Below, in pieces: positions 32,005 through 58,643 of a DNA stretch of 64,000 nt. The translations under genes and the position numbers were made by a program. The stretch's first letter is position 1; every line of letters begins with the position of its first letter. This stretch comes from Clavibacter nebraskensis NCPPB 2581. Lineage in GTDB: Bacteria; Actinomycetota; Actinomycetes; Actinomycetales; Microbacteriaceae. Where the stretch lies: positions 248,001 to 312,000 of the forward strand of contig NC_020891.1 of assembly GCF_000355695.1 (NCBI RefSeq), given 5' to 3'. Below the pieces are notes generated by a model, which searched no databases, had not been told where the DNA came from, and worked only from the letters and a program-made list of their open reading frames with translations.

Positions 32005-32858
32005 GCGTCGACGCCGGATCCGCGGTCGGAGCCGCCGCCGTCGCCGCGATGGACCCGCGCGCCGCGGCCGCCCTGCTCGACGACCTGGCCGACCGCGGCT
32101 GGCCGGCCGAGCACCGCGAGCGGTATGCGGGCTGGATCCTCCGCGCCGCCGGCGGCGTGACGAAGCGCGCGAACTCGGCGCTCCCGGTCGGCCCCGTCGA
32201 CGACCCGGACGCCGCTCTCGACGCGGTGGAGGCGTTCGCGCGCGACCACGGGATCGACGCGTGCGTGCAGGTGTCGCCCGCGTCGGAGCCGTCCGACCTC
32301 CCGGCGCGGCTGGCATCCCGCGGCTACGTCGCCGAGGCGCGCACGCTCGTGCAGGTGGCCGACGCGCACGTCGTCGCCGACCGGCTCGCGGGCGCCCGGC
32401 ACGTCGATCCCGCGCTCGCGGTCACGGTCGCGGACGCGCCCGACGACGCCTGGCTCGACGCGTGGTGGAGCGTCGACGGGCGCGGCGGATCCACGGAGCT
32501 CGCGGTCGCGCGCGGGATCCTCGAGCGTGGCCCGGCCGTGCACGCCGCCGTCCGCGACGGCGACCGCGTCCTCGCGACCGCGCGCCTCGCGCTCGTGGGC
32601 GGCTGGGGCGGCCTCTTCGCCGTCGCGACGCGCCCCGACGCCCGCCGCAGGGGCCTGTCGCGGGCGGCCATGGGAGCGGCGGTCCGGGCGGGCGCCGCGC
32701 GGGGGATCACCGACCTCTGGCTGCAGGTCGTGGCCGAGAACCGCGGGGCCCTGGCCCTGTACGACGCGCTCGGCTTCGTGCCCGCCTCGCGCTACGAGTA
32801 CTGGGCCCGCACCCGCCAGCCGTCCGACGCGACGAGGTCGGCGAGGAACCCGGCGTAG
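32001..32858 (+). CDS. GNAT-family N-acetyltransferase with N-terminal extension
   Basis: A 285-residue protein starting at GTG 32001, fixed by the GTGA overlap with the dipeptidase stop. The first about 130 residues (WPAEHRERYAGWILRAAGG, TKRANSALPVG) form the degenerate N-terminal GNAT half seen in a group of actinobacterial tandem GNATs. The C-terminal half has the functional CoA motif RPDARRRGLSRAAMGAAV and ENRGALALYDALGFVPASRY. The substrate is unknown; the operon partner suggests amino acids or peptides. Its last 67 bp overlap the convergent ABC transporter gene, and the final residues after WART are probably neutral tail. Confidence 0.82.
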   Translation: MSVDAGSAVGAAAVAAMDPRAAAALLDDLADRGWPAEHRERYAGWILRAAGGVTKRANSALPVGPVDDPDAALDAVEAFARDHGIDACVQVSPASEPSDLPARLASRGYVAEARTLVQVADAHVVADRLAGARHVDPALAVTVADAPDDAWLDAWWSVDGRGGSTELAVARGILERGPAVHAAVRDGDRVLATARLALVGGWGGLFAVATRPDARRRGLSRAAMGAAVRAGAARGITDLWLQVVAENRGALALYDALGFVPASRYEYWARTRQPSDATRSARNPA

Positions 32859-34531
32859 ACGCCCGGCTGCCCGGCGAGCTCGTCGTGCGCGCCGCGCTGC
32901 GCGAGGCGGCCGCCGTCGAGCACGAGGATCTCGTCGGCGCTCCGCACGGTGTCGAGCCGGTGCGCGATCACGAGCAGGGTGCGGCGCCCGCGCAGGAGCC
33001 GGATCGCCTCGGCCACGGCCGCGGCGCTCTCCGCGTCGAGCGCCGCCGTGGCCTCGTCGAGCACGACCACGGGCGCGTCCTTCAGGAGCACGCGGGCGAT
33101 CGACACGCGCTGGCGCTGGCCGCCCGAGAGCTGGCGGCCGCCCTCGCCCACGGGCGTGTCGAGGTCGAGCCCGTCGCCGAGCGGAAGGCCGGCACGGCGC
33201 AGCGCGTCCGTGACGGCCGCGTCGTCCGCGTCCGGATCCGCGATGCGCACGTTGTCGCCGAGCGTGCCCGCGAGCAGGTGCACGTCCTGGAAGACGGTGG
33301 ACACGTGCGCGGCCACGTCCGCGAGCGCCATGTCGCGGACGTCGACCCCGCCGATGCGCACGGCGCCGCCGGTCACGTCGGCGGCGCGGGCGACGAGCCG
33401 CGCGACCGTCGTCTTGCCGGATCCGGATGGCCCCACGAGCGCGGTCATGCGGCCCGCGGTCAGCGTGGCGCGGAGATCGGACACGGCGTCGACCGGCGCG
33501 CCCGAGTAGGCGAAGGAGACCCCGTCGAGCTCCACGTCGGATCCGTCGGGCCGGCGCGTCTCCTGGGGTGCGCGCTCGGGGATGGGGGCGGCGTCGAGGA
33601 TCCGGCCCACGGCACGCAGGTCGCGGCGGGCGGCACGTACCCCGACCGCGAGCTCGGCGGCCTGCCCGACGAGGTCTGCCGCGTGGAACACGAGCACGAG
33701 CACCGCGATGGTGCGTCCGGCGTCCGCGGGGCCGAGGAGGGGAGCCACCGCGACCACGAGCGTCACGACGAGCGCCATGCGCAGGGCGGCCCCGAACGCG
33801 ACGAGGCCCGCCACGGTGCGGCCGATGAGGGCGCGCGCGGCCGACCGGCGGCGCACGAGGATCGCGTCGAGGAGGCCCGCGTCGCGCCCGGTGCGCCCGT
33901 GCGCCCGCAGCACGTGCTGCGCCTGCGCGAACTCCACGATGCGCTCGCCCGCCTCGGTGTCCGCCGCGGCGCGCTCGGCGTCGGCGCCCTGCGCGACCAT
34001 GCCGCCCCAGCGCAGCGCGAGGGCCACGAGCGGCGCCAGCACCAGCAGCGCGATGCCGAGCGGCGGGTCGATCGCGAGCAGCCCGGCCGCGATCACGGCG
34101 GGAACGACGGTCGCGGTGATGAGCGGGCGCAGCAGGTACGCGGGCACCCCCATCGACGCCAGCACGCTGCTGCCCGCCGCGGACGTGAGCTCCGCCCGAT
34201 GCGCGGAGTCGAACCACGCGAGCGGCAGGCGCACGACGTGGTCGCCGATGCGGTGGTGAAGTACGTTCGCAGCCCGCACGCCAGCGCCGAACGCGGCTGA
34301 CTGCGCGCCGGCCTGCACGGCCAGATGAGCGGCGGCGAGCACCAGAAACAGGCCTATCCACGGCCACGCGGCCGACGGATCCGCGCCGAAGAGGCGCTCG
34401 AGCACCGGCACGAGCGCGAGCGCCGCGGCGCCGTGCAGCACGGAGGCGGCGACCATGCGGATCACCACGGGGCGGAGCTCGCGCTCCGCGTCCGGGCCGA
34501 GGGTCCTCCGCAGGTCGTCCATCGCGCGCAT
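32792..34531 (-). CDS. ABC transporter half-subunit 2 (IrtB/YbtQ-like, membrane plus ATPase)
   Basis: A 579-residue type IV (exporter-fold) half-transporter. Residues about 1-320 form six membrane segments with the ABC_membrane pattern HHRIGDHVVRLPLAWFDSAH. The ATPase has Walker A GPSGSGKTT near 365-373, signature LSGGQRQRVSIARVLL and Walker B APVVVLDEATAALD. It starts one base inside the stop of the preceding ABC gene (TGATG), so the two form an obligate heterodimer. Homologous pairs in siderophore clusters (IrtAB, YbtPQ) import the metal complex despite their exporter fold. No FAD/siderophore-interaction domain is fused here. Confidence 0.88.
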   Translation of the reverse strand: MRAMDDLRRTLGPDAERELRPVVIRMVAASVLHGAAALALVPVLERLFGADPSAAWPWIGLFLVLAAAHLAVQAGAQSAAFGAGVRAANVLHHRIGDHVVRLPLAWFDSAHRAELTSAAGSSVLASMGVPAYLLRPLITATVVPAVIAAGLLAIDPPLGIALLVLAPLVALALRWGGMVAQGADAERAAADTEAGERIVEFAQAQHVLRAHGRTGRDAGLLDAILVRRRSAARALIGRTVAGLVAFGAALRMALVVTLVVAVAPLLGPADAGRTIAVLVLVFHAADLVGQAAELAVGVRAARRDLRAVGRILDAAPIPERAPQETRRPDGSDVELDGVSFAYSGAPVDAVSDLRATLTAGRMTALVGPSGSGKTTVARLVARAADVTGGAVRIGGVDVRDMALADVAAHVSTVFQDVHLLAGTLGDNVRIADPDADDAAVTDALRRAGLPLGDGLDLDTPVGEGGRQLSGGQRQRVSIARVLLKDAPVVVLDEATAALDAESAAAVAEAIRLLRGRRTLLVIAHRLDTVRSADEILVLDGGRLAQRGAHDELAGQPGVYAGFLADLVASDGWRVRAQYS

Positions 34532-36339
34532 CAGCGGTCCTCCTCGGGGGTGGGGGCGGGGGCGGGGGTGGGGGCGAGGGTGGCGCGGAGCAGCCGTGCG
34601 TACGGGCCGTCGTGCGCCAGCAGCTCGGCGTGGGTGCCGCTCTCGGCGATGCGACCGGCCTCCATCACGACGATGCGGTCGGCGTGCTCCACGCTCGCCA
34701 GCCGGTGCGCGACCACCAGCACGGTGCGGCCGCGCGTCGCGTGCTCCAGGGCGCGCTGCATGCGGGCGGCGGTCGACGGATCCGCGTGCGCCATCGGCTC
34801 GTCGAGCAGGAGCACGGGGCAGTCCGCGACGAGCGCGCGGGCGAGCGCGAGCCGCTGGGCCTCTCCTCCGGAGAGGGCGGTGCGCGGATCCAGCACGGTC
34901 GCGTACCCGTCCGGGAGCGCGGCGATCACGTCGTCGATCTGCGCGATGCGGGCGGCGGCGCGCACCTCGCCGAGCGATGCGTCCGGGCGGCCGAGGCGGA
35001 GGTTCTCGAGCGCGGTGTCGCGCAGCAGCACGGTGTCCTGCAGCACGCAGCCGACCTGGACGTGCCAGGCGGCGGCGGTCGCATCGCGCACGTCCACCCC
35101 GCCGAGCTCGACGGTGCCGCGCGTGGGCAGGCGGAGGCGCGCCACGAGGGCCGCGAGGGTGGACTTGCCGGATCCGGACGGGCCGACGAGCGCGGTCACG
35201 GATCCGGGCGGCAGGTCGAGGTCGATGCCGTCGAGCACGTCGCGCTCGCCGTCGTACGAGAAGCCGACCCCGCGGAGCACGAGGCCCGCGCCGCTCCGCA
35301 CCTCCGGCGTCCGCGGGTGCTCGACGGACGGCTCGACGGGCGCGCGCAGCACCTCGTCGACCGAGGCCGCCGCGTCCACGGCGCCGCGGATCGCCTGCAC
35401 GCGCGGTCCGATGGCGCCGACGGGCGCCGCCATCGCGGGCGCCAGCAGCAGGAACGGTGCGAGGTCGGCGGCGGGCAGCGCGCCCGCGGCGACCATCGCG
35501 CCGCCCACCGGGACGACCAGCGCGAGGACGCCGAGCGGCGAGACGGTGAGCCACGACGCCGTGGTGGCGGCCGTGGTGCGGGCGACCCAGGCGCCGAAGA
35601 ACGCGGCGAACGCATCCACCGCCTCCGTGTAGCGCGCGTGCGCCCGGCCGGGGCGGCCGAAGGAGCGCACCACCTGGATCCCGTCGGCGAACTCCACCAC
35701 GCTGCCCGCGATCTCCCCGGCCGCGCGCCCGTACTCGGCCATCGAGGACATGGCGCCCGCCATCGCCCGCGCGAACAGGGCCATTCCGGCCACGAGCGGC
35801 AGCAGGCAGACGAGCGCGAGCGGTACGTCGACGGTGAGCAGGTAGACGAGCGACGCGACGGTGACGACCACGAGCCGCGTCGCGTCGAGCAGCGTGTGCG
35901 CGACGAGCGCGTGCAGCGCCGCCACGTCCCCCTGCACCGACTGTCGCACGCGGCCGGCGTCGTGCGCGTCGAACCAGGAGAGCGGCACGCGGCCGAGGCG
36001 CGCGACGACGCGGCGTCGGAGATCCAGCTGCAGGTCGGCGTCGGCCAGGTGCGTGAGCGTGTCGGCGGACGCGCTGAGCACGAGACCCGCGATCCCCGCG
36101 GCGGCGGCGGCGACCACCCAGCCCCACGCGGGCGGGCCGCCGGGGTCCGCGACCAGGGCGCGGCCGATCTCGGCGACCGCGACGAAGGCGACCAGCCCGC
36201 TCGCGGACGCGACCGCCTGCACCGCGACGGCCGCGACCAGGCGCCCGCGGACGGCGCGCACGGCGTCGGCGACGGTCGCGGGGGCGTCCGTCGCGGGATC
36301 CGCGCGCGCCTCCCGCTGCGCCGTCGTCGCGTCGCTCAT
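34531..36339 (-). CDS. ABC transporter half-subunit 1 (IrtA/YbtP-like, membrane plus ATPase)
   Basis: A 602-residue partner of the following half-transporter. The membrane domain (about 30-330) contains RRVVARLGRVPLSWFDAHDA. The ATPase has Walker A GPSGSGKSTL near 383, signature ALSGGEAQRLALARAL and Walker B PVLLLDEPMAHADP, with DEPMAHAD instead of the usual DEATSALD, a variation shared with YbtP/IrtA-like subunits. The C-terminus is a short Pro/Ala repeat. It starts ATGA-overlapping the methyltransferase stop, placing it third in the thioesterase-led unit. Predicted role: uptake or export of the metallophore. Confidence 0.88.
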   Translation of the reverse strand: MSDATTAQREARADPATDAPATVADAVRAVRGRLVAAVAVQAVASASGLVAFVAVAEIGRALVADPGGPPAWGWVVAAAAAGIAGLVLSASADTLTHLADADLQLDLRRRVVARLGRVPLSWFDAHDAGRVRQSVQGDVAALHALVAHTLLDATRLVVVTVASLVYLLTVDVPLALVCLLPLVAGMALFARAMAGAMSSMAEYGRAAGEIAGSVVEFADGIQVVRSFGRPGRAHARYTEAVDAFAAFFGAWVARTTAATTASWLTVSPLGVLALVVPVGGAMVAAGALPAADLAPFLLLAPAMAAPVGAIGPRVQAIRGAVDAAASVDEVLRAPVEPSVEHPRTPEVRSGAGLVLRGVGFSYDGERDVLDGIDLDLPPGSVTALVGPSGSGKSTLAALVARLRLPTRGTVELGGVDVRDATAAAWHVQVGCVLQDTVLLRDTALENLRLGRPDASLGEVRAAARIAQIDDVIAALPDGYATVLDPRTALSGGEAQRLALARALVADCPVLLLDEPMAHADPSTAARMQRALEHATRGRTVLVVAHRLASVEHADRIVVMEAGRIAESGTHAELLAHDGPYARLLRATLAPTPAPAPTPEEDR

Positions 36340-37103
36340 CGGCGCAGCACCGCGACCTCCGTCGCCGCGTCCTCCATCCCGCCGCGGAGCGCGCTCCACG
36401 GTCGGCCCGCCTCGCGTGCCAGCGTCGCCGCGTCCAGGCTGTGCCATTCGTATCCCCCCATGACCTCGCGTACCGCCCTCGTGCCGTCGAGCACGAGCCA
36501 GCGGGTGGTGAACCGGGTGGCGCCGTCCCGGCCGGGCTCGGCCGTGGTCCACCACTCGTAGGTCTGCGTGCCGATGCGCTCGCGCAGGAGCCGCGTCGGC
36601 GGGAGCGCGCGGGCGCTCGTGCCCATCAGGTCGACCACGATCACGCCGCCGGGCTCGAGCCGCTCGAGGCAGCGCCGCCAGAGGCCAGCGCGGTCGGCGC
36701 CGCCGAGGTGCCCGGCCACGCCGATGAGCACGACCGCCTGGATGCGGTCGGGCAGCGTCAGCTCCTGGGCCGTCTCGGGGCGGATGGTCACCCGGTGGCG
36801 GAGCGCCGGATCCTCGTGCACGCGGCTCCGCAGCACCGCGCGCATCACGGGCGAGGGCTCGGCCGCGAGGATCGGCGCGTCGGGGAGCAGCGCGGCGATC
36901 AGGCGCGTGATGCGGCCCGTGCCGGCGCCGATCTCCACGACGGTCCCGGGGGCGTCGGGCGCAGCGGGGGCGCCGACCGGCTCGCCCGCCGAGGTGCCCG
37001 CCAGCGCCTCGGCGAGCACGCCCGCCATCGCCTCCGTGTGCCTCCGGGCCACGAGGTCGTAGAACTCCGCGCCGGGGGAGTAGTCCTGCAGGTCGAGCGT
37101 CAC
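36336..37103 (-). CDS. Class I SAM-dependent methyltransferase of the metallophore cluster
   Basis: A 255-residue methyltransferase starting at GTG 37103 (GTGA overlap with the thioesterase stop). SAM motif I is VVEIGAGTGRITRLI near residues 53-67, the acidic loop is ILAAEPSPVMRAVL, and LPDRIQAVVLIGVAGHLGG is motif II/III. It is clearly paralogous to the C-terminal domain of the reductase-methyltransferase fusion at 39235-41157: both share AEPS..RAVL, DLPDR/LPDR, a GH-L block, a V-DLMG/V-ETMG strand and E-WW. It probably methylates an N, O or C atom of the peptide scaffold. Position cannot be predicted. Confidence 0.85.
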   Translation of the reverse strand: MTLDLQDYSPGAEFYDLVARRHTEAMAGVLAEALAGTSAGEPVGAPAAPDAPGTVVEIGAGTGRITRLIAALLPDAPILAAEPSPVMRAVLRSRVHEDPALRHRVTIRPETAQELTLPDRIQAVVLIGVAGHLGGADRAGLWRRCLERLEPGGVIVVDLMGTSARALPPTRLLRERIGTQTYEWWTTAEPGRDGATRFTTRWLVLDGTRAVREVMGGYEWHSLDAATLAREAGRPWSALRGGMEDAATEVAVLRR

Positions 37104-37897
37104 GGGAACATCGCCTCCGCCTGCGCGGGGAAGGCCAGCGCGGGATCCAGCCGGGAGACGAGCGCCTCCACGACCTCCGCGCGCCGGGCCTGGAGGTAGA
37201 AGTGGCCGCCGGGGAACACCGCGAGGTCGGCCCCTCCCGCGCCGCCGGCGAGCCGGTGCCACGCGTCGGCCTCCGCGGGTCGCAGCTCGGGATCCGCGTC
37301 GCCGCTGAACACGCTCAGCGGGCAGCGGGGATCCGGCCCCGGTGCGGTGCGGTGCGTCTCCACGAGCCGGTAGTCGTCGCGGAGGCAGGCGAGGACCGTG
37401 CGCCGCATCTCGGCGTCGGCGAGGATCTCCGCCGCGGTCCCGCCCTGCCGCTCGAGGTCGGCGAGGAGCACGTCCTCGTCCTGCAGGTGCAGGGTGCCGC
37501 CCCACCGCACGGTCGGCGCGCGGCGGCCTGACACGACGAGCCGCACGGCGGGGCGGTCGCGCGCGGCGAGGAGGCGCGCGGTCTCGTAGGCCACCAGGGC
37601 GCCCATGCTGTGGCCGAAGAGCACGACCGGCAGGCGGTCGGTCAGCGCGGCGACGGCGTCGGCGATCTCGGCTGCGAGGGCGTCGAGGTCGCGGGGCAGG
37701 GGGTCCCCGAAGCGATCGCCCCGGCCGGGGTACTGGACGCCCACCAGCTCGACGCCCGCGGGGAGGAAGGGCGCCCAGCCGCGATGCGCCGTGGCCGCGC
37801 CGCCCGCGTGCGGCAGGCAGACGAGGCGGATGCGCGCGTCGGGCGCCGCCGCGAGCCGCCGCAGCGGGCCGGGCGCGGCGCGCGGGGTGTCGATCAT
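37100..37897 (-). CDS. Type II thioesterase of the NRPS cluster
   Basis: A 265-residue alpha/beta hydrolase with the ordered signatures of editing thioesterases: RLVCLPHAGGAATAHRGWAP, VQYPGRGDRFGDPLP, the nucleophile elbow VVLFGHSMGALVAYETA and a late catalytic His in FPGGHFYLQARR. It clears mis-primed or stalled acyl groups from carrier proteins of the two NRPSs. ATG 37897 has GAGGAG about 7 bases upstream on the minus strand. First gene of a unit running thioesterase, methyltransferase, ABC1, ABC2, divergent from the P450 gene. Confidence 0.92.
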   Translation of the reverse strand: MIDTPRAAPGPLRRLAAAPDARIRLVCLPHAGGAATAHRGWAPFLPAGVELVGVQYPGRGDRFGDPLPRDLDALAAEIADAVAALTDRLPVVLFGHSMGALVAYETARLLAARDRPAVRLVVSGRRAPTVRWGGTLHLQDEDVLLADLERQGGTAAEILADAEMRRTVLACLRDDYRLVETHRTAPGPDPRCPLSVFSGDADPELRPAEADAWHRLAGGAGGADLAVFPGGHFYLQARRAEVVEALVSRLDPALAFPAQAEAMFP

Positions 37898-37965
37898 GGC
37901 TGCTCCTCGTGACGGGGGCGGGCGGGCGGTCGCCGCGGTCGACGCGACGGAGGCGGTCGGGGAGG

Positions 37966-37997
37966 AGCGTAGCCCTTATTGAGAACCATGTGCAATA
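37966..37997. promoter_or_regulatory. Divergent promoter region with TTATTGAGAACC motif (thioesterase unit / P450)
   Basis: On the minus strand TTGCAC (37990-37995) and TACGCT (37966-37971) are 18 bp apart and make a plausible -35/-10 pair for the thioesterase unit. Between them lies the 12-mer TTATTGAGAACC (37977-37988), identical to one in the NRPS/ligase promoter at 54725-54736. Its second half (ATGTGCA) fits a 15-bp Zur-like palindrome poorly. The shared 12-mer nevertheless suggests common control of both divergent promoters. Confidence 0.45.
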
Positions 37998-38048
37998 GTG
38001 CCGACGCCGCGCCCGACCGAGCCGGCCCGATCCCCGCAAGGAGAAGCC

Positions 38049-50800: not shown

Positions 50801-53800
50801 GTGCGGATCCCACCGCGGCCGTCGGGGTAGCGCAGCGCGTCGACGTCGAAGAGCGGCCAGACGGCGAGGTCGTGGCACCGGTGCGAGGTGCGCGCGCGGA
50901 ACGCCTGGAGCGCCGCGTCCACCGCGTCCGGATCCGCGTCGGCCGGCACGTCGCGCGCGTCGACGCGCACGGCAGGCACCTCCTCCAGCACGCGCTGGGT
51001 GCCGTCGGGGTCGATCACGGTGCGCAGCGTCGGGTGCCGGCGCACGAGCTCGTCGAACGCGGCCGCGAGCAGGTCGAGGTCCTGCCCCTGGCCGTCGAAC
51101 TCGGTGTGGTGGTAGGTGCCGACGCCGCCGAGCGGGATGCGGGGGTCGCGGCCGACCGCGTACGCGCGCTGCACGTCGGTGAGCGGGAAGGGGTCGTGCC
51201 GGTGCTCGGGGTCCGGCACGATGCGGGAGCGCGCGTCCGCCGGCTCCGGTGCCGTGAGGTGCAGCGTCGCCGCGAAGTCGGCCAGCACCGGGTGCCGGAA
51301 GAGCGCGGCCACGCTCGCGTCGGCGGCGCCCGCGGCGCGCAGGGCGGCGATGCTGCGGGTGGCCTGCAGGGAGTCGCCGCCCGCGGCGAAGAAGGAGCGC
51401 CCGCGACCGCACGGGGTGCCGAGCAGGCCGCTCCACACCCGCTCCACGAGCCGCTCCTCGGGCGACATCGAGGCGTCGTCCGGCCGCGGCGCGGGGGCCG
51501 GGCGCTCGGCGAGCGCGGCGATGATCCGGGCCCGGTCGACCTTCCCGTTGGCCGTGAGCGGCAGCTCGGCCCGCACGACCACGCGCGCGCACGCCATGGA
51601 CGGCGGCAGCAGCGCGCCCGCGTGGGTCGCGACGTCGTCGGGCACGACGACCGCGCCGGGCTCGGGCACCACCATCGCCGCGAGCGCGCCCGCGACGGCG
51701 ACGACGACCGCGCGCTGCACGCCCGGGAAGGAGGCCAGCGCGGCCTCGACCTCCCCGGGTTCGACGCGGTGGCCGCGGATCTTGAGCTGGTGATCCGCGC
51801 GCCCGAGGAACTCGAGCACCGGCCGCCCCGCGTCGTCGCGCCGGTACCTGCCGCGGTCGCCCGAGCGGTACCAGCGCTCGCCGCCGCGCACCGGGAAGCG
51901 GGCCGCGGTGAGACCGGGCTCGCCGCGGTAGCCGCGGGCCAGCGCGTGCCCGCCCACGAGCAGCTCGCCGGGCACGCCGTCGGGGCGGTCGCGTCCGCGC
52001 TCGTCGACGACCCGGAGGCGCACGCCCGGCAACGGGGCGCCCCAGGGGAGGCCGCGCGCGGCGGACGCGGGGGACACGGGGGCGTCGGCGCGCGCCTCGT
52101 GCACGGTGGAGTGGATGGTCGCCTCCGTCATCCCGCCGAGCGCGAGCAGCCGGGCGGCGGGCGCGCAGGCGGCCAGGCGCCCCGGCAGATCCACCCCGAC
52201 CACGTCGCCGCCGAGCAGCACGAGCCGGAGCGGCAGGGATCCGTCGCCGGTCGCCGCGAGCAGCATGTCGAGGAGCGCCGGCACGGTGTTCCAGACCGTG
52301 ACGCCGTGCGCGCGGACGAGCTCCCGCCACCGGTCGGCGTCGCGGCGCTCGTGCTCGGCGGGCACGACGACCGCGCCGCCCACCGAGAGCACCGCGAACA
52401 GGTCGTAGACGGAGAGGTCGAAGTCGAGCGCGGAGAGCGCGATGGTGCGGTCGTCCGGGCCGAGGGGCGCGACGACCGCGAGGGACAGGATGGTGGCGGC
52501 AGCGGCCCGGTGGGCGACCTCCACGCCCTTCGGCCGGCCGGTGGATCCGGACGTGAAGAGCAGGTAGGCGGGCTCGTCGGGGGCGACGGCGACGGGACCC
52601 GCGAGCGGCTCGGCGTGCCGGGCGGCGCCCAGCGCGACCACGGGCGGGCCGCCCGGACCGACGGCCGCCGCGGATTCGGCGACCAGCGCGTCGTCGGCGA
52701 GGACGCAGTCGATCCCCCGCTCGAGGACCGTCGCGCGGCGCGCGGGCGGCTGGTCCGGGCCGACGGGCGCGTAGCAGGCGCCGGCGAGCAGCACTCCGAG
52801 CACGGCGGCCACGCGATCCGTCCCGGCCGGCGCGGTGATCGCCACTGTCGCGCCGGGGCCGACGCCGTGCTCGCCCAGCAGCCCGGCGACCCGGCGCGCG
52901 TGGTCGGCGAGCTCACCGTACGCGACCTCTCGGTCGTCCGACGCGATGACCGCCGGCCGGTCCGGATCCGCGGCCGCCCGCGCGAGGAACGCCGAGTGCA
53001 GGAGGCCGTCGCCCGCGCCGGGCGCGTCCGCAGCCGGGGCCGGCCGCTCGAGGGCCCGGTGCGCCCGCACGTCCTCCGGGGCGGGGACCGCGAGCGCCGG
53101 CCGGTCCCAGGCGCCGGGCCGCTCGTGCACCAGCTCGTCGACGAGGCGGCGGTACGCGAGGAACGCGGCCTCCATCGCCGCCTCCTCGAGGATGTCGACC
53201 CGCACGTCCCAGTTGAGCAGCAGCCCGCCCTCGAGCTCGGTGACCTGCGCGTCGAGCCAGACCTGCGGACCCTGGGAGATGATCCACACCGGCTCCCCGA
53301 GCGCGCGACGGATGGACGCGTCGTACAGCTCGCCCAGGCCGATGGCGCTCGTGTACACGACGGGCGCCAGCACGGGGCTGCCGCCGTCGCGGCGCGCGAG
53401 GTCGCGGAGCACGTCGACGCCGCCGTAGCCCGCGTGGGCGACGGCCTCGCGCACGCCCTGCTGGATCCGCGCCGCGTCCTCCCGGAACGGCCGCTCCTCC
53501 CGCAGGTCGACGTCGAGCAGGATCGAGGTGCTGAACTCGCCGACGAGCAGCTCCAGCCCCTCCTCGTCGCTGCGGTCGAGCACGGGGAGGTTGAGGAGGA
53601 AGCGGCCGTCGGCCGACCAGGCGGCCACGACCTCGGCGAACGCCGTCGCGAGCACGGCGGCCACCGTCAGCCCGCGGGAGCGCGCCGCGGCCTCAAGCAG
53701 GCGGAGCTCCTCCTCTCCTACACGGTGGTGCAGCCGGCGGGAGCGCGGCACGGTCCCCGCCCGCTCGGCGTCGTCGCGCACGGGCAGCGCGGGTCCCGCC

Positions 53801-54702
53801 GGGAGGTCGGGCACGCGCTCGCGCCACCAGCGCGCGTCGGACGAGGAGCGGGACGCCGCGGCGCGCGCGGCCCGGGCCGCCAGCTCGCCGCGCACGTCGC
53901 GGTGGATCTCGCGCAGCGGCCGCCCCGGCTCGTCCACGAGGTCGCGGAGGTCGGCGAGGATCACGCGGAGGCTGATGGCGTCGCCCGCGAGCATGTCGAG
54001 GTCGACGTGCAGGCGGCAGCGGCCGAACGGCAGGAGCGTCAGGTCGACGCGGAGCACCTCGCCGCGCTCGACGGCCATGCGGCGGTGCGTGCCCGCGTCG
54101 CGCATCTCCGCCAGGCGCGCGTCCACGGCGTCGGCGGGCAGCGCGCGGAGGTCGTGGACGCGCAGCCGGGCGGCGGGCGGCTCCTCGTCGGCGGGCAGGG
54201 GCTGCTGCGTGCCGTCGTCCCGGAAGCGCATCCTGAGCGACGCGTGCCGGGCGACCAGGGCGGCGAGGGCCGTGCGCAGCCGCTCGGGGTCCCGCTCCGC
54301 CCCGTCGAGCTCGACGTAGAAGTGCGCGGCGACCGACCCGGACGGCTGGCCGGGCTGCCGGCCGAGCCAGTACGCGTGCTGCAGCGGCGTGAGGGGCGAC
54401 GGCGACGCGGGGTCGAGGGCGGGAGCGGCGGCCGTGCTCGTGCCGGGATCCGCGTCCGCGGCGGCATCGCCCAGCACTCGCGTCCACGCCCGGATCGTGG
54501 GGTCGGCCGCGAGCCGCGAGAAGTCGGCCGCGAGCCCGTCGCGTCGCCAGCGCCCGGCGAGGCGGATCAGCGCGGTGGACTCGAGCCCGAGGTCCACCAG
54601 GTCGTCGTCGAGGCCCACCTCGGCGGGGTCGAGGCGCAGGGCGCGCGCGACCTGGTCGCGGAGCAGCGCGGCGGGAGGGACGGAGGGGATCCGCTCGGTC
54701 AT
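47857..54702 (-). CDS. NRPS 1: ArCP-Cy-A-PCP-Cy-A-PCP, aryl-thiazoline synthetase
   Basis: A 2281-residue synthetase. Aryl carrier protein at 8-80 with the phosphopantetheine Ser42 in LVDLGLESTALIR; Cy1 from about 103 (LTPLQHAYWLGRQ; motif DMLAGDAIS); A1 with YLLFTSGSTGRPKG; PCP1 FFAAGGDSLQATR near 1110; Cy2 from about 1171 (DYAVVDALS); A2 with YVIHTSGSTGEPKG; PCP2 FFAAGGDSLAMLR near 2204; and a short C-terminal tail (ADLFESGDL) that may dock the next enzyme. Hand-read codes are D-L-Y-N-L-G-L-I-H for A1 and D-L-F-D-L-S-L-I-W for A2, both near the Cys code. It loads salicylate and builds two thiazoline-type rings. ATG 54702 has GAGGAG upstream. Confidence 0.93.
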   Translation of the reverse strand: MTERIPSVPPAALLRDQVARALRLDPAEVGLDDDLVDLGLESTALIRLAGRWRRDGLAADFSRLAADPTIRAWTRVLGDAAADADPGTSTAAAPALDPASPSPLTPLQHAYWLGRQPGQPSGSVAAHFYVELDGAERDPERLRTALAALVARHASLRMRFRDDGTQQPLPADEEPPAARLRVHDLRALPADAVDARLAEMRDAGTHRRMAVERGEVLRVDLTLLPFGRCRLHVDLDMLAGDAISLRVILADLRDLVDEPGRPLREIHRDVRGELAARAARAAASRSSSDARWWRERVPDLPAGPALPVRDDAERAGTVPRSRRLHHRVGEEELRLLEAAARSRGLTVAAVLATAFAEVVAAWSADGRFLLNLPVLDRSDEEGLELLVGEFSTSILLDVDLREERPFREDAARIQQGVREAVAHAGYGGVDVLRDLARRDGGSPVLAPVVYTSAIGLGELYDASIRRALGEPVWIISQGPQVWLDAQVTELEGGLLLNWDVRVDILEEAAMEAAFLAYRRLVDELVHERPGAWDRPALAVPAPEDVRAHRALERPAPAADAPGAGDGLLHSAFLARAAADPDRPAVIASDDREVAYGELADHARRVAGLLGEHGVGPGATVAITAPAGTDRVAAVLGVLLAGACYAPVGPDQPPARRATVLERGIDCVLADDALVAESAAAVGPGGPPVVALGAARHAEPLAGPVAVAPDEPAYLLFTSGSTGRPKGVEVAHRAAAATILSLAVVAPLGPDDRTIALSALDFDLSVYDLFAVLSVGGAVVVPAEHERRDADRWRELVRAHGVTVWNTVPALLDMLLAATGDGSLPLRLVLLGGDVVGVDLPGRLAACAPAARLLALGGMTEATIHSTVHEARADAPVSPASAARGLPWGAPLPGVRLRVVDERGRDRPDGVPGELLVGGHALARGYRGEPGLTAARFPVRGGERWYRSGDRGRYRRDDAGRPVLEFLGRADHQLKIRGHRVEPGEVEAALASFPGVQRAVVVAVAGALAAMVVPEPGAVVVPDDVATHAGALLPPSMACARVVVRAELPLTANGKVDRARIIAALAERPAPAPRPDDASMSPEERLVERVWSGLLGTPCGRGRSFFAAGGDSLQATRSIAALRAAGAADASVAALFRHPVLADFAATLHLTAPEPADARSRIVPDPEHRHDPFPLTDVQRAYAVGRDPRIPLGGVGTYHHTEFDGQGQDLDLLAAAFDELVRRHPTLRTVIDPDGTQRVLEEVPAVRVDARDVPADADPDAVDAALQAFRARTSHRCHDLAVWPLFDVDALRYPDGRGGIRTRIAIGIDYAVVDALSIMILYTELDLLVRGLPLPPAPAELTFRDCVLQTRPDPERRRADEEHWRARLADMPDAPRLPLADRDPAPRFTRRAHRFDAAWWAAFRDRCRTAGLTPTSMLATAYGHVLSRWSGQRDLTMTLTLFDRRDVHPDMPRLVGDFTALTLLDHRAAGSAVEAARGLQERLAADLDHREAPASWILRERARLAGTAVAPVPVVFTSAIGVGDGVGVGDGVGVGDGVGVGVGDGVSADVSGAFGERIHGVSQSPQVLLDVQVLEDHGGLRVDADARDDAFPPGLVDALFAAYVATLEHLAASGWDAPLPVDPPADQARARATATAAPRPGRLLHDAVREAALRAPEAPALITGTGASTRVVTHGQLADRALRIAGALQRRGIGPGDLVGVTLPRGADQAAAVLGVLSAGAAYAPIGVGQPPARRRAIHRAGGIRLVIADDPAAAGGDEPDAPALLRPADAAAEEPLAAPVRPSVEALAYVIHTSGSTGEPKGVEIAHDAAWSTVEAVGRMLDLGPGDRILALSALDFDLSVFDVLGVLGAGGALVIPEEGEERDAPRWLDLVHEHGVTLWDTVPMLLDMLLVAADDRPGRLGALRAALVSGDRVGTDLHGRLIRAAGPGTRLVALGGATEAAIWSNAWEVDGPLEGWGSAPYGRPLPDQAFRVLDACGRDCPDWVPGEFVIGGRGLARGYRGDPARTAAAFVELDGGRWYRTGDTGRYRPGGILEFLGRADRQVKLGGHRMELGEIEAALAASPGVRRAIALVVDGPAGRRRLHAAVEPDDGHDGAAVLSAATATAADRLPSYAMPQRIHLVDAWPLTANGKVDVPALARALAEADALTHAGADPTRCADADAAHGPARPAAPATATEAALTELWAGVLGTPPAPGVGFFAAGGDSLAMLRLVTAAQRRFGVDAGVRRFLEEPTVPAYAACIDRARLAAATPSTPASASPADAPARPPATAGADLFESGDL
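50071..50148 (+). repeat. 18-bp tandem repeat inside the second Cy domain of NRPS 1
   Basis: Four copies of CCCGTCGCCGACGCCGAC, with a 6-bp partial unit after the first, run in phase with the gene. They encode a VGVGDG repeat (about residues 1518-1544) between the VVFTSAIG and HGVSQSPQ blocks of the Cy domain. The other two Cy domains have only a short loop there. A slippage-prone in-frame repeat can change length without breaking the gene. Confidence 0.85.
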
Positions 54703-54727
54703 GTGCACGCTCCTCGGACTCGGGTTA

Positions 54728-54745
54728 TTGAGAACCGTTATCATA
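54728..54745. promoter_or_regulatory. Zur-like box and divergent promoter between NRPS 1 and the salicylate ligase
   Basis: TGAGAACCGTTATCA (54729-54743) is a 7-1-7 inverted repeat with six of seven arm pairs matching, similar to the actinobacterial Zur consensus TGAAAATGATTTTCA (recalled). It overlaps a minus-strand -10-like TATGAT (54745-54740), about 38 bp before the NRPS ATG. On the plus strand TTGAGA (54728-54733) could serve as a -35. One bound repressor could therefore shut off both operons. It does not resemble the IdeR/DtxR iron box. Confidence 0.55.
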
Positions 54746-54802
54746 TGGCCGATGACGCGCCGGCGACGAGATCCGTCCACGGCAGGAGGAGGACGCCGAC
54801 GG

Positions 54803-56512
54803 ATGCACGGACGCGAGCACACGGAGGGCCCGGGTCACGAGCCCGGTGGCGGATGCGCCGACTGGGCCGAGGGGATGGGCCGGGCCGCCCGGGCGGCGGG
54901 GCGGCAGCCGGACGCGCGGCTCGACGGCATCCTGCGGCGGAGCGCCGCCCGCGTGCCCGACCGCACGGCGCTCGTCGGCGCCGGCGGGCGCTGGACCCAC
55001 GCCGAGCTCGACGCCGAGGTCGACCTCGCCGCGCGCGGCCTGATCCGGTCGGGCATCCGGCCAGACGACCGGATCCTGCTGCAGCTCGCCGACGGCGCCG
55101 CCTTCGTCATCGCCTGGTTCGCGCTCGTGCGCGCCGGCGCCGTGCCCGTGCACGCGATGCCCGCCCACCGGCTCATGGAGCTCGCGCACCTCGCGGCCGG
55201 CAGCGGGGCGCGCGGCATGGTCGTCGCGGAGCGCGTCGGCCGGGACGACGGCCGTGGCCTCGCGGCCGGGGTGCGCGCGGCCTGCCCCGGGCTCGACCTC
55301 GTCATCGTGCACGGGCCGCGACGCGCGGACGGCGCCCTCACGTGGGAGGGGATCCGCGAGCTCGGGCGCGAGGACGCGAGCCCCGCCCCGGGGCTCGACC
55401 CGGTCGCGCCCGACGGCGCGCCCCGCCTCGCGCTCCTCCTGCACTCGGGCGGCACCACGGGCCTGCCCAAGCTCATCCCGCGCCACCACGCGGAGTACTC
55501 CTACAACGCGTGGGCGGCGGCGCGCGCGGCGGGCGTCGGTCCCGGCGCGGTGCTGCTGGCCGTGCTGCCCGTGGCCTTCAACTTCACCCTCGCGTGCCCC
55601 GGCGTGCTCGGCGTGCTCGATGCGGGCGGTACCGTCGTCGTCGCGCCCGACCCGGATCCCGCGACGGCCTTCGCGCTCGTCGCCCGCGAGCGCGTGACGC
55701 ACGTGGCCCTGACCCCCACGCTGGCGCGGGCGTGGATCGACGAGGCCGCGCACGCGACCGCCGACCTCTCGAGCCTCCGCGTCGTCCAGGTCGGCGGCGC
55801 CCGACTCGACGACGTCACGGCGCGCGCCCTGGAGCCCGCGCTCGGGGCGACGCTCCAGCAGGTCTACGGGATGGCCGAGGGGCTCGTCTGCATGACCGCC
55901 CTCGACGATCCGCCCGAGCTGCGCTGGAGCACCCAGGGGCGCCCGACCAGCCCCGACGACCTGGTCCGACTGCGTGCCGCCGACGGATCCCTCGCGGCTG
56001 ACGGCGACGAGGGCGAGCTGGAGACCCGCGGGCCGTGCACGCTCCGCGCGTACCACGCGGCCCCCGAGGCGGACGCGTCGGCCTTCACGCCCGACGGCTT
56101 CTACCGCGCCGGCGACATCGTGCGGCGGCTCCCGTCGGGGCACGTCGTGGTCACGGGACGCGCGAAGGACCAGGTCAACCGCGGCGGCGAGAAGTACTCC
56201 GCGGCGGAGGTCGAGCGCTACCTGCAGGCCATGCCGTCCGTGCGCGCGGCAGCCGTGGTGCCGGTGCCGGATCCCGACCTCGGCGAACGCGCCGTCGCGG
56301 TCATCGCCTGCGCGGGGCACGCTCCCGATCGCCGCGCGGTCGTCGCGCACCTCCGGTCGCTCGGGGTGGCGGCGTACAAGCACCCGGACCGCGTGGTCGC
56401 GCTGCCCGCGCTGCCGCTCACCGCCGTGGGCAAGGTCGACAAGGCCCGGATCGCCGCGCTGCTCTCCGCGGGATCGGGCACGGATGCGCATGCCGACCGG
56501 GACCGTGCTTGA
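54803..56512 (+). CDS. Salicylate-AMP ligase (aryl-adenylating stand-alone A domain)
   Basis: A 569-residue ANL enzyme that activates an aryl acid and loads the ArCP of NRPS 1. The P-loop is LLLHSGGTTGLPKLIPRHH; other blocks are VYGMAEGLVCMTALDD, YRAGDIVRRLPSGHVVVTGR and the catalytic Lys in LPLTAVGKVDKARI. Asn260, Phe261, Cys265 and Cys363 correspond to the N-F-C...C residues of the salicylate code recalled for PchD/YbtE, not the N-Y-S...N of 2,3-dihydroxybenzoate enzymes; one position (Val362) fits the latter. ATG 54803 was chosen because AGGAGGAGG lies 10 bases upstream; ATG 54752 has no ribosome site. Confidence 0.93.
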   Translation: MHGREHTEGPGHEPGGGCADWAEGMGRAARAAGRQPDARLDGILRRSAARVPDRTALVGAGGRWTHAELDAEVDLAARGLIRSGIRPDDRILLQLADGAAFVIAWFALVRAGAVPVHAMPAHRLMELAHLAAGSGARGMVVAERVGRDDGRGLAAGVRAACPGLDLVIVHGPRRADGALTWEGIRELGREDASPAPGLDPVAPDGAPRLALLLHSGGTTGLPKLIPRHHAEYSYNAWAAARAAGVGPGAVLLAVLPVAFNFTLACPGVLGVLDAGGTVVVAPDPDPATAFALVARERVTHVALTPTLARAWIDEAAHATADLSSLRVVQVGGARLDDVTARALEPALGATLQQVYGMAEGLVCMTALDDPPELRWSTQGRPTSPDDLVRLRAADGSLAADGDEGELETRGPCTLRAYHAAPEADASAFTPDGFYRAGDIVRRLPSGHVVVTGRAKDQVNRGGEKYSAAEVERYLQAMPSVRAAAVVPVPDPDLGERAVAVIACAGHAPDRRAVVAHLRSLGVAAYKHPDRVVALPALPLTAVGKVDKARIAALLSAGSGTDAHADRDRA

Positions 56513-57185
56513 CGCGATCCTCCCCGCCGGGGCCGTCCTGGCGGAGGAGCGCGGTCCCGCGGGCGAGCACCCCCTGCATCCCGCTGAGGCCGGCGCCGTG
56601 GCCCGCGCGGTGCCGTCCCGCCGGCGCGAGTTCGCGGCGACCCGGGCCTGCGCCCGCACCGCCCTCGCCGCCCTCGCCGGGGACGCGACGGGCGCCGCCG
56701 CCGTCGCGATCCCGAAGGGCCGGGGAGGCGACCCCGTCTGGCCGCGCGGCGTGGTCGGCAGCCTCACGCACTGCGCCGGCTATCGGGCCGCCGTCGTCGC
56801 GGGCGTCGACGCGCTGCGCACCATCGGGATCGACGCCGAGCCGCACGCGCCCCTGCCCCGGGAGGCCCGGGACATGGTCGGCCTCGCGGGCGAGCTCGAC
56901 CCGCATCCGCCGCTCGGCGCCGACGTGCACGCGGACTGCGTGCTCTTCAGCGCGAAGGAGTCGGTGGGCAAGGCGCACTTCGCCCGGTACCGCGAGTGGC
57001 TGGGCTTCACGGACCTCCACGTGACGCTCCACCCCGGCGGCACGTTCACCGCCCGCCGGTGCGCGCCCGGCCCCGTCCCGTTCCCCGCCTACCGCGGCAG
57101 CTGGTGCGTCGCGGAGGGCCTCGTCCTCACGTGCGCGTGGCTCGCCGTGCCCCGCATCCCGTCCGCCGTCCCCCGCCCCGCCTGA
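56490..57185 (+). CDS. 4'-phosphopantetheinyl transferase (EntD/Sfp type)
   Basis: A 231-residue protein overlapping the ligase stop by 23 bp (start ATG 56490; ATG 56484 two codons earlier is possible). EntD-type motifs are GVVGSLTHCAGYRAAVVA, TIGIDAEPHAPLP (Mg-binding Asp-x-Glu) and LFSAKESVGKAHF. It converts the apo carrier domains of the two NRPSs to the active form by adding the phosphopantetheine arm. Having a dedicated enzyme in the cluster makes the pathway self-contained. Second gene of the ligase-PPTase-salicylate synthase operon. Confidence 0.93.
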   Translation: MPTGTVLDAILPAGAVLAEERGPAGEHPLHPAEAGAVARAVPSRRREFAATRACARTALAALAGDATGAAAVAIPKGRGGDPVWPRGVVGSLTHCAGYRAAVVAGVDALRTIGIDAEPHAPLPREARDMVGLAGELDPHPPLGADVHADCVLFSAKESVGKAHFARYREWLGFTDLHVTLHPGGTFTARRCAPGPVPFPAYRGSWCVAEGLVLTCAWLAVPRIPSAVPRPA

Positions 57186-57195
57186 AGGAGTCCTC

Positions 57196-58632
57196 ATGCC
57201 CGCAGCCCCCGTGACCCGCGCCGCCGAGCTGCGGATCACCCGCGACCCGCTCGGTGCCGTCGCCGACCTCGCGCGGGCGTTCCGCCATGAGCCGCACGTG
57301 ATCCTCGAGGAGGCGGGGCGGTTCTCGTGCGCGATCGGCGCGTGGGCGGAGGTCGTGGTCGACCGTCGGGTCGTCCGCCTGCGCGTCCCGGGCGCGGAGG
57401 ACGTGGTCGTGCCGTGGCGGGAGCAGCCGCTGCGCCAGGTGGACCGGCTGCTCGCGAGCCTCGGCCCCGACCGCGGGCGGGCATACGGCACCGCGTCCTT
57501 CGAGCTGGCGTGCGCGCACGCGGGCATGCCGGTCGCCGCGGACGCGGGGGAGCTCCTGCACGTGATCCTGCCGCGCACGGAGGTGACCATCGCGGACGGC
57601 CGCGCGACCGTCCGATCGGGGGACGCGCGCGAGGCAGCGCTGGTCGCGCGGATCCTCGGCGCGGCCGAGCCCGCGGCGGGCCCCGACGCCGAGCTCGCCG
57701 CCCTCGAGCCCGCGCACGAGCGCCTCGGCGCGGCCGACCCCGAGGAGGGGCACGCGCGCTACCTGGCGGCGGTCGCGGCGGGCATCGCCGCCATCCGCGC
57801 GGGGGAGCTCCGGAAGGTCGTCCTGTCGCGCCGGGTGCCCGTCGCGGGAGAGGTCGACCTGCCCGCCACCTTCGTGCGGGGACGACGGGCGAACACGCCC
57901 GCCCGCTCCTACCTGCTGGGCCTCGGCGGGGTCGAGGCGGTGGGCTTCAGCCCCGAGATCGTCGTGGCGGTGGACGCCCGGGGCACCGTGCGCACCCAGC
58001 CGCTCGCCGGCACGCGCGCGCTCGTGGCCGACCCCGTCGAGTCGCGACGGCTGCGCGAGGAGCTCCTGTCGGACGCGAAGGAGATCCACGAGCACGCCAT
58101 CTCGGTGAAGCTCGCGGTCGAGGAGATGGCGCCCGTGTGCCGGCCGGGCAGCGTGCGCGTCGAGGAGTTCATGGTGGTGGAGGAGCGCGGCACGGTGCAG
58201 CACCTGGCCTCCCGCGTCGCGGGCGAGCTCGTCGACGGCCTCACGTCCTGGGATGCGCTGGCCGCGTCATTCCCGGCCGTCACCGCCTCGGGCGTCCCCA
58301 AGCGCGCCGCGTTCGACCTCATCCGACGGCTGGAGGGGCGTGACCGCGGCCTCTACGCCGGCGCGGTCCTCCGGATCGACCCGGACGGCGCGCTCGACGC
58401 GGCCCTGGTGCTGCGGACGCTGTTCCGGTGCGGGGACGCGACGTGGATCCAGGCCGGTGCGGGCGTCATGGGGGAGTCCCGCCCGGCGCGCGAGCTCGAG
58501 GAGACGCGCGAGAAGCTGGCGAGCATCGCGGACCACGTCGTCCGCTCCCGCGAACCCGGCTTCGGGGCGGAGTCGACGGACGGGGGTGCCGCCCACGCCC
58601 GTGCACCGCGGGGATCCGCCGCCCGCCGGTGA
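57196..58632 (+). CDS. Salicylate synthase (MbtI/Irp9-like chorismate-utilising enzyme)
   Basis: A 478-residue chorismate-binding enzyme that makes salicylate from chorismate through isochorismate. The catalytic base lysine is in GELRKVVLSRRVPV near residue 206, where MbtI has Lys205. TQPLAGTRALVADPVESRRL, LSDAKEIHEHAISVKLAVEE, FMVVEERGTVQHLASRV and FPAVTASGVPKRAAFDLI are MbtI/Irp9 blocks. AGAGVMGESRPARELEET and EKLASIADH complete the Mg-binding end. No separate pyruvate lyase (PchB-like) gene is present, consistent with a bifunctional enzyme. It follows the PPTase after 10 bp and ends 11 bp from the convergent membrane protein gene. Confidence 0.93.
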   Translation: MPAAPVTRAAELRITRDPLGAVADLARAFRHEPHVILEEAGRFSCAIGAWAEVVVDRRVVRLRVPGAEDVVVPWREQPLRQVDRLLASLGPDRGRAYGTASFELACAHAGMPVAADAGELLHVILPRTEVTIADGRATVRSGDAREAALVARILGAAEPAAGPDAELAALEPAHERLGAADPEEGHARYLAAVAAGIAAIRAGELRKVVLSRRVPVAGEVDLPATFVRGRRANTPARSYLLGLGGVEAVGFSPEIVVAVDARGTVRTQPLAGTRALVADPVESRRLREELLSDAKEIHEHAISVKLAVEEMAPVCRPGSVRVEEFMVVEERGTVQHLASRVAGELVDGLTSWDALAASFPAVTASGVPKRAAFDLIRRLEGRDRGLYAGAVLRIDPDGALDAALVLRTLFRCGDATWIQAGAGVMGESRPARELEETREKLASIADHVVRSREPGFGAESTDGGAAHARAPRGSAARR

Positions 58633-58643
58633 CGGGCCGCGGC

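What the first reader, a model, noticed from the sequence alone, without database searches (positions are those of the whole stretch)
32792..58632. Complete, apparently undescribed salicylyl-tris(thiazoline-type) metallophore cluster in a Microbacteriaceae-like genome
Seen: salicylate synthase, salicylate ligase, PPTase, two NRPSs totalling ArCP plus three Cy-A-PCP modules and TE, two reductases, two methyltransferase domains, P450, type II thioesterase and an ABC pair, in four units around two divergent promoters. Established: this gene set recalls Streptomyces coelibactin and, more distantly, yersiniabactin/pyochelin. Inference: the product is salicylate plus three cyclised Cys residues, with reduction, methylation and oxidation. 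It differs from yersiniabactin in having no PKS and from pyochelin in having one more ring.
Basis: partly seen in the sequence, partly recalled or inferred. Interest (0 to 1): 0.85.

Follow-up and report, generated by a model that had tools for sequence, protein, structure and literature searches.

The report
Zinc-controlled coelibactin-type metallophore cluster in Clavibacter
A plant-associated Clavibacter genome carries a removable 26-kb gene set that very probably builds a small metal-grabbing molecule of the coelibactin family and appears to be switched on when zinc runs short, which offers a new way to learn what coelibactin-type molecules look like.

Summary
In detail: 32,792-58,632 is an intact NRPS metallophore cluster in four units around two divergent promoters, with three (not two) methyltransferase domains. 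The genus is Clavibacter. It is not an unknown type: ten genes have the order seen in 17 of 80 fetched relatives (15 Streptomyces) at 43-55% identity, the P450's best solved relative is CYP105N1 of coelibactin, and the terminal TE has the rare active-site Cys of coelibactin and sorangibactin. The 'three cysteines' inference is probably wrong: the first A domain has a Ser/Thr-type code (DLYNLGLIH, as in a Sorangium homologue), so the first ring is probably an oxazoline/oxazole. New here: a perfect actinobacterial Zur-box core lies in the NRPS promoter and a weaker one in the other promoter; such sites also precede znuA-znuC-znuB-zur and CobW_C genes in this genome, so zinc is the likely cue. 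The cluster is a clean presence/absence island in 9 of 18 Clavibacter genomes. Only 2 of those 9 have the P450, and all 9 have Gly-to-Arg in SAM motif I of the embedded methyltransferase. I file it as a new member of a known kind with unusual variation; product, metal and regulation remain untested at the bench.

The parts
32792..34531 (-). ABC1, fused permease/ATPase
   Evidence: Pfam ABC_tran 8.2e-29; colinear in 17 relatives; start
34531..36339 (-). ABC2, fused permease/ATPase
   Evidence: Pfam ABC_tran, ABC_membrane; PDB matches include IrtA (about 330 bits) and YbtP (272 bits), but ABCB1-type exporters score as high (up to 343)
36336..37103 (-). stand-alone SAM methyltransferase, motif I VVEIGAGTG
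37100..37897 (-). type II thioesterase
   Evidence: Pfam Thioesterase 3.8e-45
37977..37997 (+). Zur-type box TATTGAGAACCATGTGCAATA in the TEII/P450 divergent promoter (2 of 10 core positions differ)
   Evidence: same place in 9 of 9 carriers with 2-3 core mismatches
38049..39245 (+). cytochrome P450, CYP105N1-like (SCO7686), inverted relative to Streptomyces
   Evidence: phmmer 3tyw 427.7 bits, next 292.2; 3TYW is CYP105N1; same strand as the operon in 17 of 17 colinear relatives
39235..41157 (-). Irp3/YbtU-like thiazolinyl imine reductase fused to a C-terminal SAM methyltransferase (VLDIGAGTG)
   Evidence: TIGR01761 4e-85; PDB 4gmf YbtU; fused in 17 of 17 colinear relatives
41154..42299 (-). 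saccharopine-dehydrogenase-like reductase (SrbE-like)
   Evidence: Pfam Sacchrp_dh_NADP 2.8e-12
42296..47860 (-). NRPS2: TubC_N docking-Cy-A3(embedded MT)-PCP-TE; TE motif GYCLGG; MT motif I LEVRGGVGG; A3 code DLFNLSLIW
   Evidence: motifs; code; start
47857..54702 (-). NRPS1: ArCP-Cy-A1-PCP-Cy-A2-PCP; A1 code DLYNLGLIH, A2 DLFDLSLIW
   Evidence: Pfam; codes; motifs
54726..54746 (+). Zur-type box TATTGAGAACCGTTATCATAT, perfect core at 54729-54743, in the NRPS1/ligase divergent promoter
   Evidence: perfect core in 8 of 8 carriers examined, G016 not examined
54803..56512 (+). salicylate (DHB-type) adenylate ligase
   Evidence: TIGR02275 1.4e-142, below its cut-off
56505..57185 (+). 4'-phosphopantetheinyl transferase
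   Evidence: Pfam 4PPT_N, ACPS; start read
57196..58632 (+). salicylate synthase
   Evidence: TIGR03494 5.5e-123, over cut-off
32805..58643 (.). island: absent with a clean junction in 9 of 18 genomes of the genus (ends uncertain by about 30 bases)

Best explanation
The locus is a functional coelibactin-family metallophore cluster of Clavibacter, held as a polymorphic chromosomal island and probably repressed by zinc-loaded Zur. Chorismate is turned into salicylate, which is activated by the ligase and loaded on the ArCP of NRPS1. Module 1 adds and cyclises a Ser or Thr (aryl-oxazoline); modules 2 and 3 add and cyclise two Cys. The Irp3-like reductase reduces thiazolines to thiazolidines, trans-acting methyltransferases N-methylate, and the P450, where present, oxidises the oxazoline to an oxazole. 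The Cys-type TE releases the chain, possibly by capture with a free amino acid as in sorangibactin. The product is probably a zinc-directed metallophore; the ABC pair moves it or its metal complex. Shown here: gene content, gene order, motif integrity, purifying selection, the Zur-type sites and the island junctions. Inferred: substrates, product, metal, Zur binding, and direction of transport.
For: Order and strand NRPS1-NRPS2-SDH-Irp3MT-P450-TEII-MT-ABC2-ABC1-SalS are shared by 17 of 80 fetched relatives (15 Streptomyces, Actinoallomurus, Microbispora) at 43-55% identity; in the window the same genes stand in that order except that the P450 is inverted and SalS sits elsewhere. The P450 is closest to CYP105N1. 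Cys-TE GYCLGG as in those loci and as described for coelibactin and sorangibactin (PMC10127202). A1 DLYNLGLIH equals the Sorangium and Luteibacter A1 and differs from Cys codes at 301 (G for S) and 331 (H for W); sorangibactin's first residue is Ser by isotope feeding, mupirochelin's is predicted Thr. Zur: the core of the published actinobacterial motif (PMC5472717) gives 10 sites at <=1 mismatch in 3.06 Mb, reversed control 0; one of 3 perfect sites is the NRPS promoter, and znuA-znuC-znuB-zur-rpmB-rpsN, two CobW_C genes and an ArsP_1 permease follow others. The regulator beside znuABC is closest to 3mwm (S. coelicolor Zur, recalled) and M. tuberculosis FurB 2o03. 13 of 13 segments tested have median omega 0.03-0.38.
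Against: The TEII/P450 box matches the core poorly (2-3 of 10 positions differ). The characterised relatives sorangibactin and mupirochelin answer mainly to iron, so a Zur site does not prove the ligand's metal. There is no room for a SrbJ (VOC) gene in the cluster, although it was essential for sorangibactin. The embedded methyltransferase has Gly to Arg in motif I. The P450 is missing in 7 of 9 carriers and the PPTase in one, G008. Ser/Thr versus Cys for A1 rests on a code; antiSMASH and PRISM called Cys for the related mupirochelin A1, though antiSMASH also called Cys for the sorangibactin A1 that takes Ser.
Confidence: 0.8

Rival explanations
1. Iron siderophore: the same kind of molecule, but used mainly for Fe(III), with the Zur-type boxes giving only secondary or no control.
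For: Sorangibactin is induced by low iron and binds Fe; mupirochelin is repressed more by iron than by zinc; yersiniabactin/pyochelin-type chemistry binds iron (recalled).
Against: No DtxR/IdeR-like site (consensus recalled) at <=3 mismatches in the window (chance expectation is also 0, so weak evidence); a perfect Zur core in 8 of 8 NRPS promoters examined; S. coelicolor coelibactin is Zur-controlled and without DmdR1 sites.
Confidence: 0.15
2. One reading: salicylate plus three cyclised Cys (tris-thiazoline type).
For: All three modules are Cy-A-PCP; antiSMASH and PRISM called Cys for the equivalent A1 of mupirochelin; A2 and A3 carry Cys-type codes.
Against: A1 code G301/H331, shared with the Sorangium homologue; 4 of 30 relatives have the S/W type instead (two Actinomyces, Microbulbifer, Frateuria).
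Confidence: 0.15
3. The cluster no longer makes a product in this lineage (decay after acquisition): changed methyltransferase motif, P450 losses, PPTase loss in one genome.
Against: No stops in the 13 segments tested in 8 carriers (P450, ABC2 and NRPS1 were not among them); median omega 0.03-0.38, TE 0.033, embedded MT 0.19; NRPS box kept.
Confidence: 0.07

Closest known systems
Coelibactin cluster, Streptomyces coelicolor SCO7681-7691 and Streptomyces homologues (product not isolated as of PMC10127202, 2023)
   Same: Gene content, core gene order (P450 in place but inverted, SalS moved), Irp3-methyltransferase fusion, CYP105N1-type P450, Cys-TE, Zur control (Streptomyces: published; here: sites). 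The S. coelicolor cluster itself was not fetched; relatives such as S. coelicoflavus and S. tendae were
   Different: 43-55% identity; P450 inverted; ligase-PPTase-SalS form a divergent unit upstream of NRPS1 while SalS is at the far end in the 17 colinear relatives; no ferredoxin/metal-ABC block like SCO7676-80 in the immediate flanks; A1 code DLYNLGLIH instead of DLWQLGLVH; changed MT motif I; most Clavibacter copies lack the P450
Sorangibactin cluster (srb, myxobacterial strain MSr11367; product known)
   Same: SalS, ligase, SDH, Irp3-like reductase, P450, methyltransferases, Cys-TE; A1 code identical in a Sorangium homologue (L160)
   Different: No VOC gene SrbJ in the cluster; reductase-methyltransferase fusion; no LysR regulator gene in the cluster; iron-repressed in its native strain
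Mupirochelin (Pseudomonas) and predicted equibactin
   Same: Aryl-oxazoline then thiazolidines predicted; mupirochelin binds Zn and Fe
   Different: TonB receptors and AraC regulator, mainly iron control
Yersiniabactin
   Same: SalS, ligase, Irp3/YbtU reductase, Cy domains, YbtPQ-like ABC pair
   Different: No PKS here; first residue probably not Cys; P450 and SDH present
Pyochelin
   Same: Salicyl-ArCP, Cy-A-PCP modules, embedded methyltransferase; the PchE structure 7emy is the best solved match of module 1
   Different: One more module, P450, SDH, Cys-TE

Membership tests
Coelibactin-type clusters | Two NRPSs with ArCP plus three Cy-A-PCP modules, embedded MT and TE | tested here: met
Coelibactin-type clusters | Core gene order shared with Streptomyces loci | tested here: met
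   17 of 80 relatives; the window differs by P450 inversion and SalS position
Coelibactin-type clusters | CYP105N1-type P450 | tested here: met
   but absent in 7 of 9 Clavibacter carriers
Coelibactin-type clusters | TE with active-site Cys | tested here: met
Coelibactin-type clusters | Zur control | tested here: inconclusive
   Zur-type sites present and conserved; binding not tested
Coelibactin-type clusters | Ferredoxin and metal-ABC genes (SCO7676-80) beside the cluster | tested here: not met
   three genes to the left are Aldo_ket_red, Peptidase_M19 and GNAT, three to the right DUF2207, Beta-lactamase2 and Rv2525c-like; elsewhere in the genome not tested; accessory genes, absence not disqualifying
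Sorangibactin biosynthesis | First residue Ser, oxazole formation by P450 | tested here: inconclusive
   A1 code identical to a Sorangium homologue; P450 present; MSr11367's own sequence was not compared
Sorangibactin biosynthesis | VOC protein SrbJ in the cluster | tested here: not met
   largest gaps between the 12 genes are 151 and 100 bases; rest of the genome not searched
Sorangibactin biosynthesis | C-terminal homocysteine thiolactone | not testable with these tools
   needs chemistry
Yersiniabactin | PKS module in the assembly line | tested here: not met
Pyochelin | Two Cys modules only | tested here: not met
   three modules
Zur regulon | Published Zur-box core in the promoter | tested here: met
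   perfect at 54729-54743; 2 mismatches at 37980-37994
Zur regulon | Zur binding and zinc repression | not testable with these tools
   needs EMSA/transcription assay

The most novel reading that the evidence does not exclude
Clavibacter species carry a zinc-starvation-induced, coelibactin-type zincophore as a swappable island with two natural chemotypes: a P450-plus form with an aryl-oxazole and a P450-minus form keeping the aryl-oxazoline, the natural counterpart of the sorangibactin P450 knockout. The embedded methyltransferase has lost or changed its SAM function genus-wide, so methylation has passed to the two trans-acting methyltransferase domains.
Probability: 0.35. Interest if true: 0.6.

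Novelty: new member of a known kind. Interest (0 to 1): 0.45.

Why it matters
Coelibactin has been called a zincophore for years but had not been isolated when PMC10127202 was written (2023). A compact, naturally varying Clavibacter family with Zur-type promoter sites and both P450-plus and P450-minus members gives a second, independent system in which structure, metal preference and the role of the P450 and Cys-TE can be tested. It also suggests that zinc limitation matters in the plant habitat of these bacteria and marks a clean accessory island that splits the sampled genus in half.

Tried and rejected
Iron control: a scan of the window for DtxR/IdeR-like sites gave none, but chance would also give none (consensus recalled). 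Relic or decay: judged unlikely on purifying selection. Arrival by an evident mobile element: in the sequences compared at the junction and in the six flanking genes given to Pfam there is no integrase or transposase; a tRNA scan was not run. Widespread Microbacteriaceae trait: in 398 genomes of the family from 85 genera, all full-length reductase-methyltransferase matches lay in the window's genus (at most 3 candidates were scored per genome, and the match list was cut after the best); partial matches elsewhere are generic Rossmann or methyltransferase hits. ABC pair as importer: not decidable by sequence for ABC2; ABC1 was not compared with PDB. My first A-domain table had two columns shifted by one; one search is the corrected one. 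A first PDB search of the embedded methyltransferase used a wrong frame (no hits) and was replaced, which found only generic methyltransferase structures apart from one chance-level hit. A regular-expression scan for the TE motif in relatives found nothing and was replaced by alignment. Papers: searches for Clavibacter with coelibactin, Clavibacter with zincophore and Clavibacter nebraskensis with siderophore gave 0. Clavibacter with yersiniabactin gave 2, one of them PMC2613160, which lists a C. michiganensis C-A-CMT-ACP protein in the same table as one of S. coelicolor (passage read). Broader searches were seen as part listings only, with no title on this cluster: 20 of 38; 15 of 31; 15 of 70; 12 of 26. 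PMC4059874 (passages) mentions other siderophore transporters, and its main text holds none of the NRPS terms searched. The original Clavibacter genome papers were not seen.
Full report
WHAT IS THERE. The window is bases 248,001-312,000 of a single-contig 3,063,596-base genome. The best named matches to its reductase-methyltransferase protein are Clavibacter sp. VKM Ac-2873, Clavibacter sp. VKM Ac-2872 and C. tessellarius, 90-91% identical; two genomes of the window's genus have contigs of exactly the lengths of the first two records (399,716 and 2,167,218 bases). Gene calls by codon-position GC and Pfam/NCBIfam give twelve proteins in four units, as listed under parts.

CLOSEST RELATIVES. A scan of one genome per species kept the best 80 of 117 relatives. 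Mapping the window's proteins on these 80 (whose printout was cut; recounted) shows 17 loci, 15 Streptomyces plus Actinoallomurus and Microbispora, with the order NRPS1-NRPS2-SDH-Irp3MT-P450-TEII-MT-ABC2-ABC1-SalS on one strand, best-segment identity 43-55% per gene. In the window the P450 is inverted and ligase-PPTase-SalS form a divergent unit upstream of NRPS1. The P450's best solved match is 3tyw at 427.7 bits against 292.2 for the next; 3TYW is CYP105N1, SCO7686, of the coelibactin cluster (PMC3430247, passages). The terminal TE reads GYCLGG in the nine Clavibacter carriers (G016 through its named record L017) and in 19 of 19 loci L018-L036; 13 Nocardia loci read GYSVGG or GYSMGG, two Actinomyces loci GHSLGG, and a more distant Streptomyces locus (L077) has none of these. 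PMC10127202 (abstract, introduction, results and conclusions read) says this rare Cys is shared by sorangibactin and coelibactin and is essential in the former, and that coelibactin had not been isolated.

WHAT IT PROBABLY MAKES. With nine specificity positions placed by motif anchors (positions and textbook codes recalled), A2 and A3 read DLFDLSLIW and DLFNLSLIW, the Cys type; A1 reads DLYNLGLIH. In the best match to module 1 in each of 30 relatives' records, 14 read DLWQLGLVH (all Streptomyces), 6 DLYSMGLIH (two Nocardia, Lentzea, Actinokineospora, two enterobacteria), 2 exactly DLYNLGLIH (Sorangium, Luteibacter), 4 the Cys-like S...W type (two Actinomyces, Microbulbifer, and Frateuria, which has a gap and may not be module 1), and 4 are one-off G...H variants. 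Sorangibactin's first residue is Ser by feeding although antiSMASH predicted Cys; mupirochelin's is taken as Thr from MS/MS while antiSMASH and PRISM called it Cys (passages). So Ser or Thr, giving an aryl-oxazoline, is more likely than Cys. The P450 should then oxidise it to an oxazole, as SrbH is proposed to do. The SrbJ gene that sorangibactin needs is not in the cluster, so the release step may differ.

WHAT CONTROLS IT. Both divergent promoters carry a similar AT-rich element in a 76% GC window. A pattern made from these two boxes finds, at <=3 mismatches in the whole genome, only themselves and two more sites, with 0 for the reversed pattern. One of the two lies directly before znuA of a znuA-znuC-znuB-fur-family-rpmB-rpsN string, the other before a CobW_C gene. 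The fur-family protein is closest to 3mwm (S. coelicolor Zur, recalled) and M. tuberculosis FurB, 130 and 121 bits, against 66 for the best ferric uptake regulator. A second fur-family gene lies beside a catalase gene. As an independent test I used the core of the 21-bp actinobacterial Zur motif quoted in PMC5472717 (passages): 10 sites at <=1 mismatch in 3.06 Mb, reversed control 0, and 3 perfect, one of them the NRPS promoter. Of the other nine, one precedes znuA, two CobW_C genes (one in this window), one an ArsP_1 permease, one a secreted-looking subtilase/kumamolisin-like protease and one an unassigned, apparently secreted protein; three were not tied to a gene. In the window, shuffles expect 0.55 sites at <=2 mismatches and 4 are seen. 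The NRPS box has a perfect core in 8 of 8 carriers examined (G016 not examined); the TEII box is at the same place in 9 of 9 but with 2-3 core mismatches, so it is a weak site. S. coelicolor coelibactin is reported as Zur-repressed and without DmdR1 sites (PMC8000910, PMC5472717, PMC12161575; passages). Against a purely zinc role: sorangibactin and mupirochelin respond mainly to iron.

ISLAND AND VARIATION. Of 18 genomes of the genus, 9 hold the full reductase-methyltransferase (one split over two contigs) and 9 do not; two of the latter have only short generic matches. In 9 of 9 non-carriers window position 32,804-32,834 is followed within 13-113 bases by 58,630-58,644, so the unit comes or goes as one piece, ending about at gene ends. 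The seven carriers fetched for this share flanks and order with the window. A tree of three flanking genes puts 8 carriers together (88/92 support) and G016 apart; the carrier label needs 2 changes, against a shuffled mean of 6.3. In the family sample of 398 genomes all full-length matches are in this genus (limits under Tried and rejected). GC is 77.7% inside against 74.1% to the left and 75.7% to the right within the window. The P450 is present in 2 of 9 carriers, G000 and G010; G005 has a 35% relative elsewhere. In the other seven the TEII and reductase genes are 113-177 bases apart with a box retained. On a tree of three cluster genes from 8 carriers the P450 label needs 2 changes and shows no clustering. 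Since 17 relatives have it at this place, repeated loss is simplest, but its inverted orientation here leaves re-entry possible. The PPTase is largely missing between ligase and SalS in G008, where another PPTase-like stretch (49%, one stop) lies elsewhere. The embedded methyltransferase has LEVRGGVGG in all nine Clavibacter carriers, against LEVGGGVGG or LEIGGGVGG in the colinear relatives; no other locus read has Arg at this place. The domain is still constrained (median omega 0.19; TE 0.033; the 13 segments 0.03-0.38), so it keeps some role; loss of SAM binding is an inference.

VERDICT. The new and testable points are the Zur-type promoters, the island, the P450 split and the altered methyltransferase motif.

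Noticed in passing
window 16686-16700 and 16715-17788: A Zur-core site (1 mismatch) lies 14 bases before a CobW_C (COG0523-like, ZigA-like) gene: a second probable Zur target inside the window.
   Followed up: partly
L171 (genome 456741-456755): One of three perfect Zur-core sites in the genome lies upstream of a secreted-looking protease gene with Pro-kuma_activ and Peptidase_S8 matches; zinc control of a secreted protease would be unusual.
   Followed up: partly
L172 (genome 1079563-1079577): Another perfect Zur-core site beside an ORF that looks secreted and has no Pfam or NCBIfam match.
   Followed up: no
L176 (genome 2412745-2412759): Zur-core site (1 mismatch) before an ArsP_1 permease gene, a possible zinc-related permease.
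   Followed up: no
L117 7600-7800 (G008): The PPTase between ligase and salicylate synthase is largely deleted in this carrier; another PPTase-like stretch with a stop is elsewhere in the genome.
   Followed up: partly
L041, L048, L046 (Actinomyces, Rothia): Coelibactin-like genes also occur in Actinomyces and Rothia genomes; the two Actinomyces loci have Cys-type A1 codes and Ser-type TEs, the Rothia locus a Cys-type TE.
   Followed up: no
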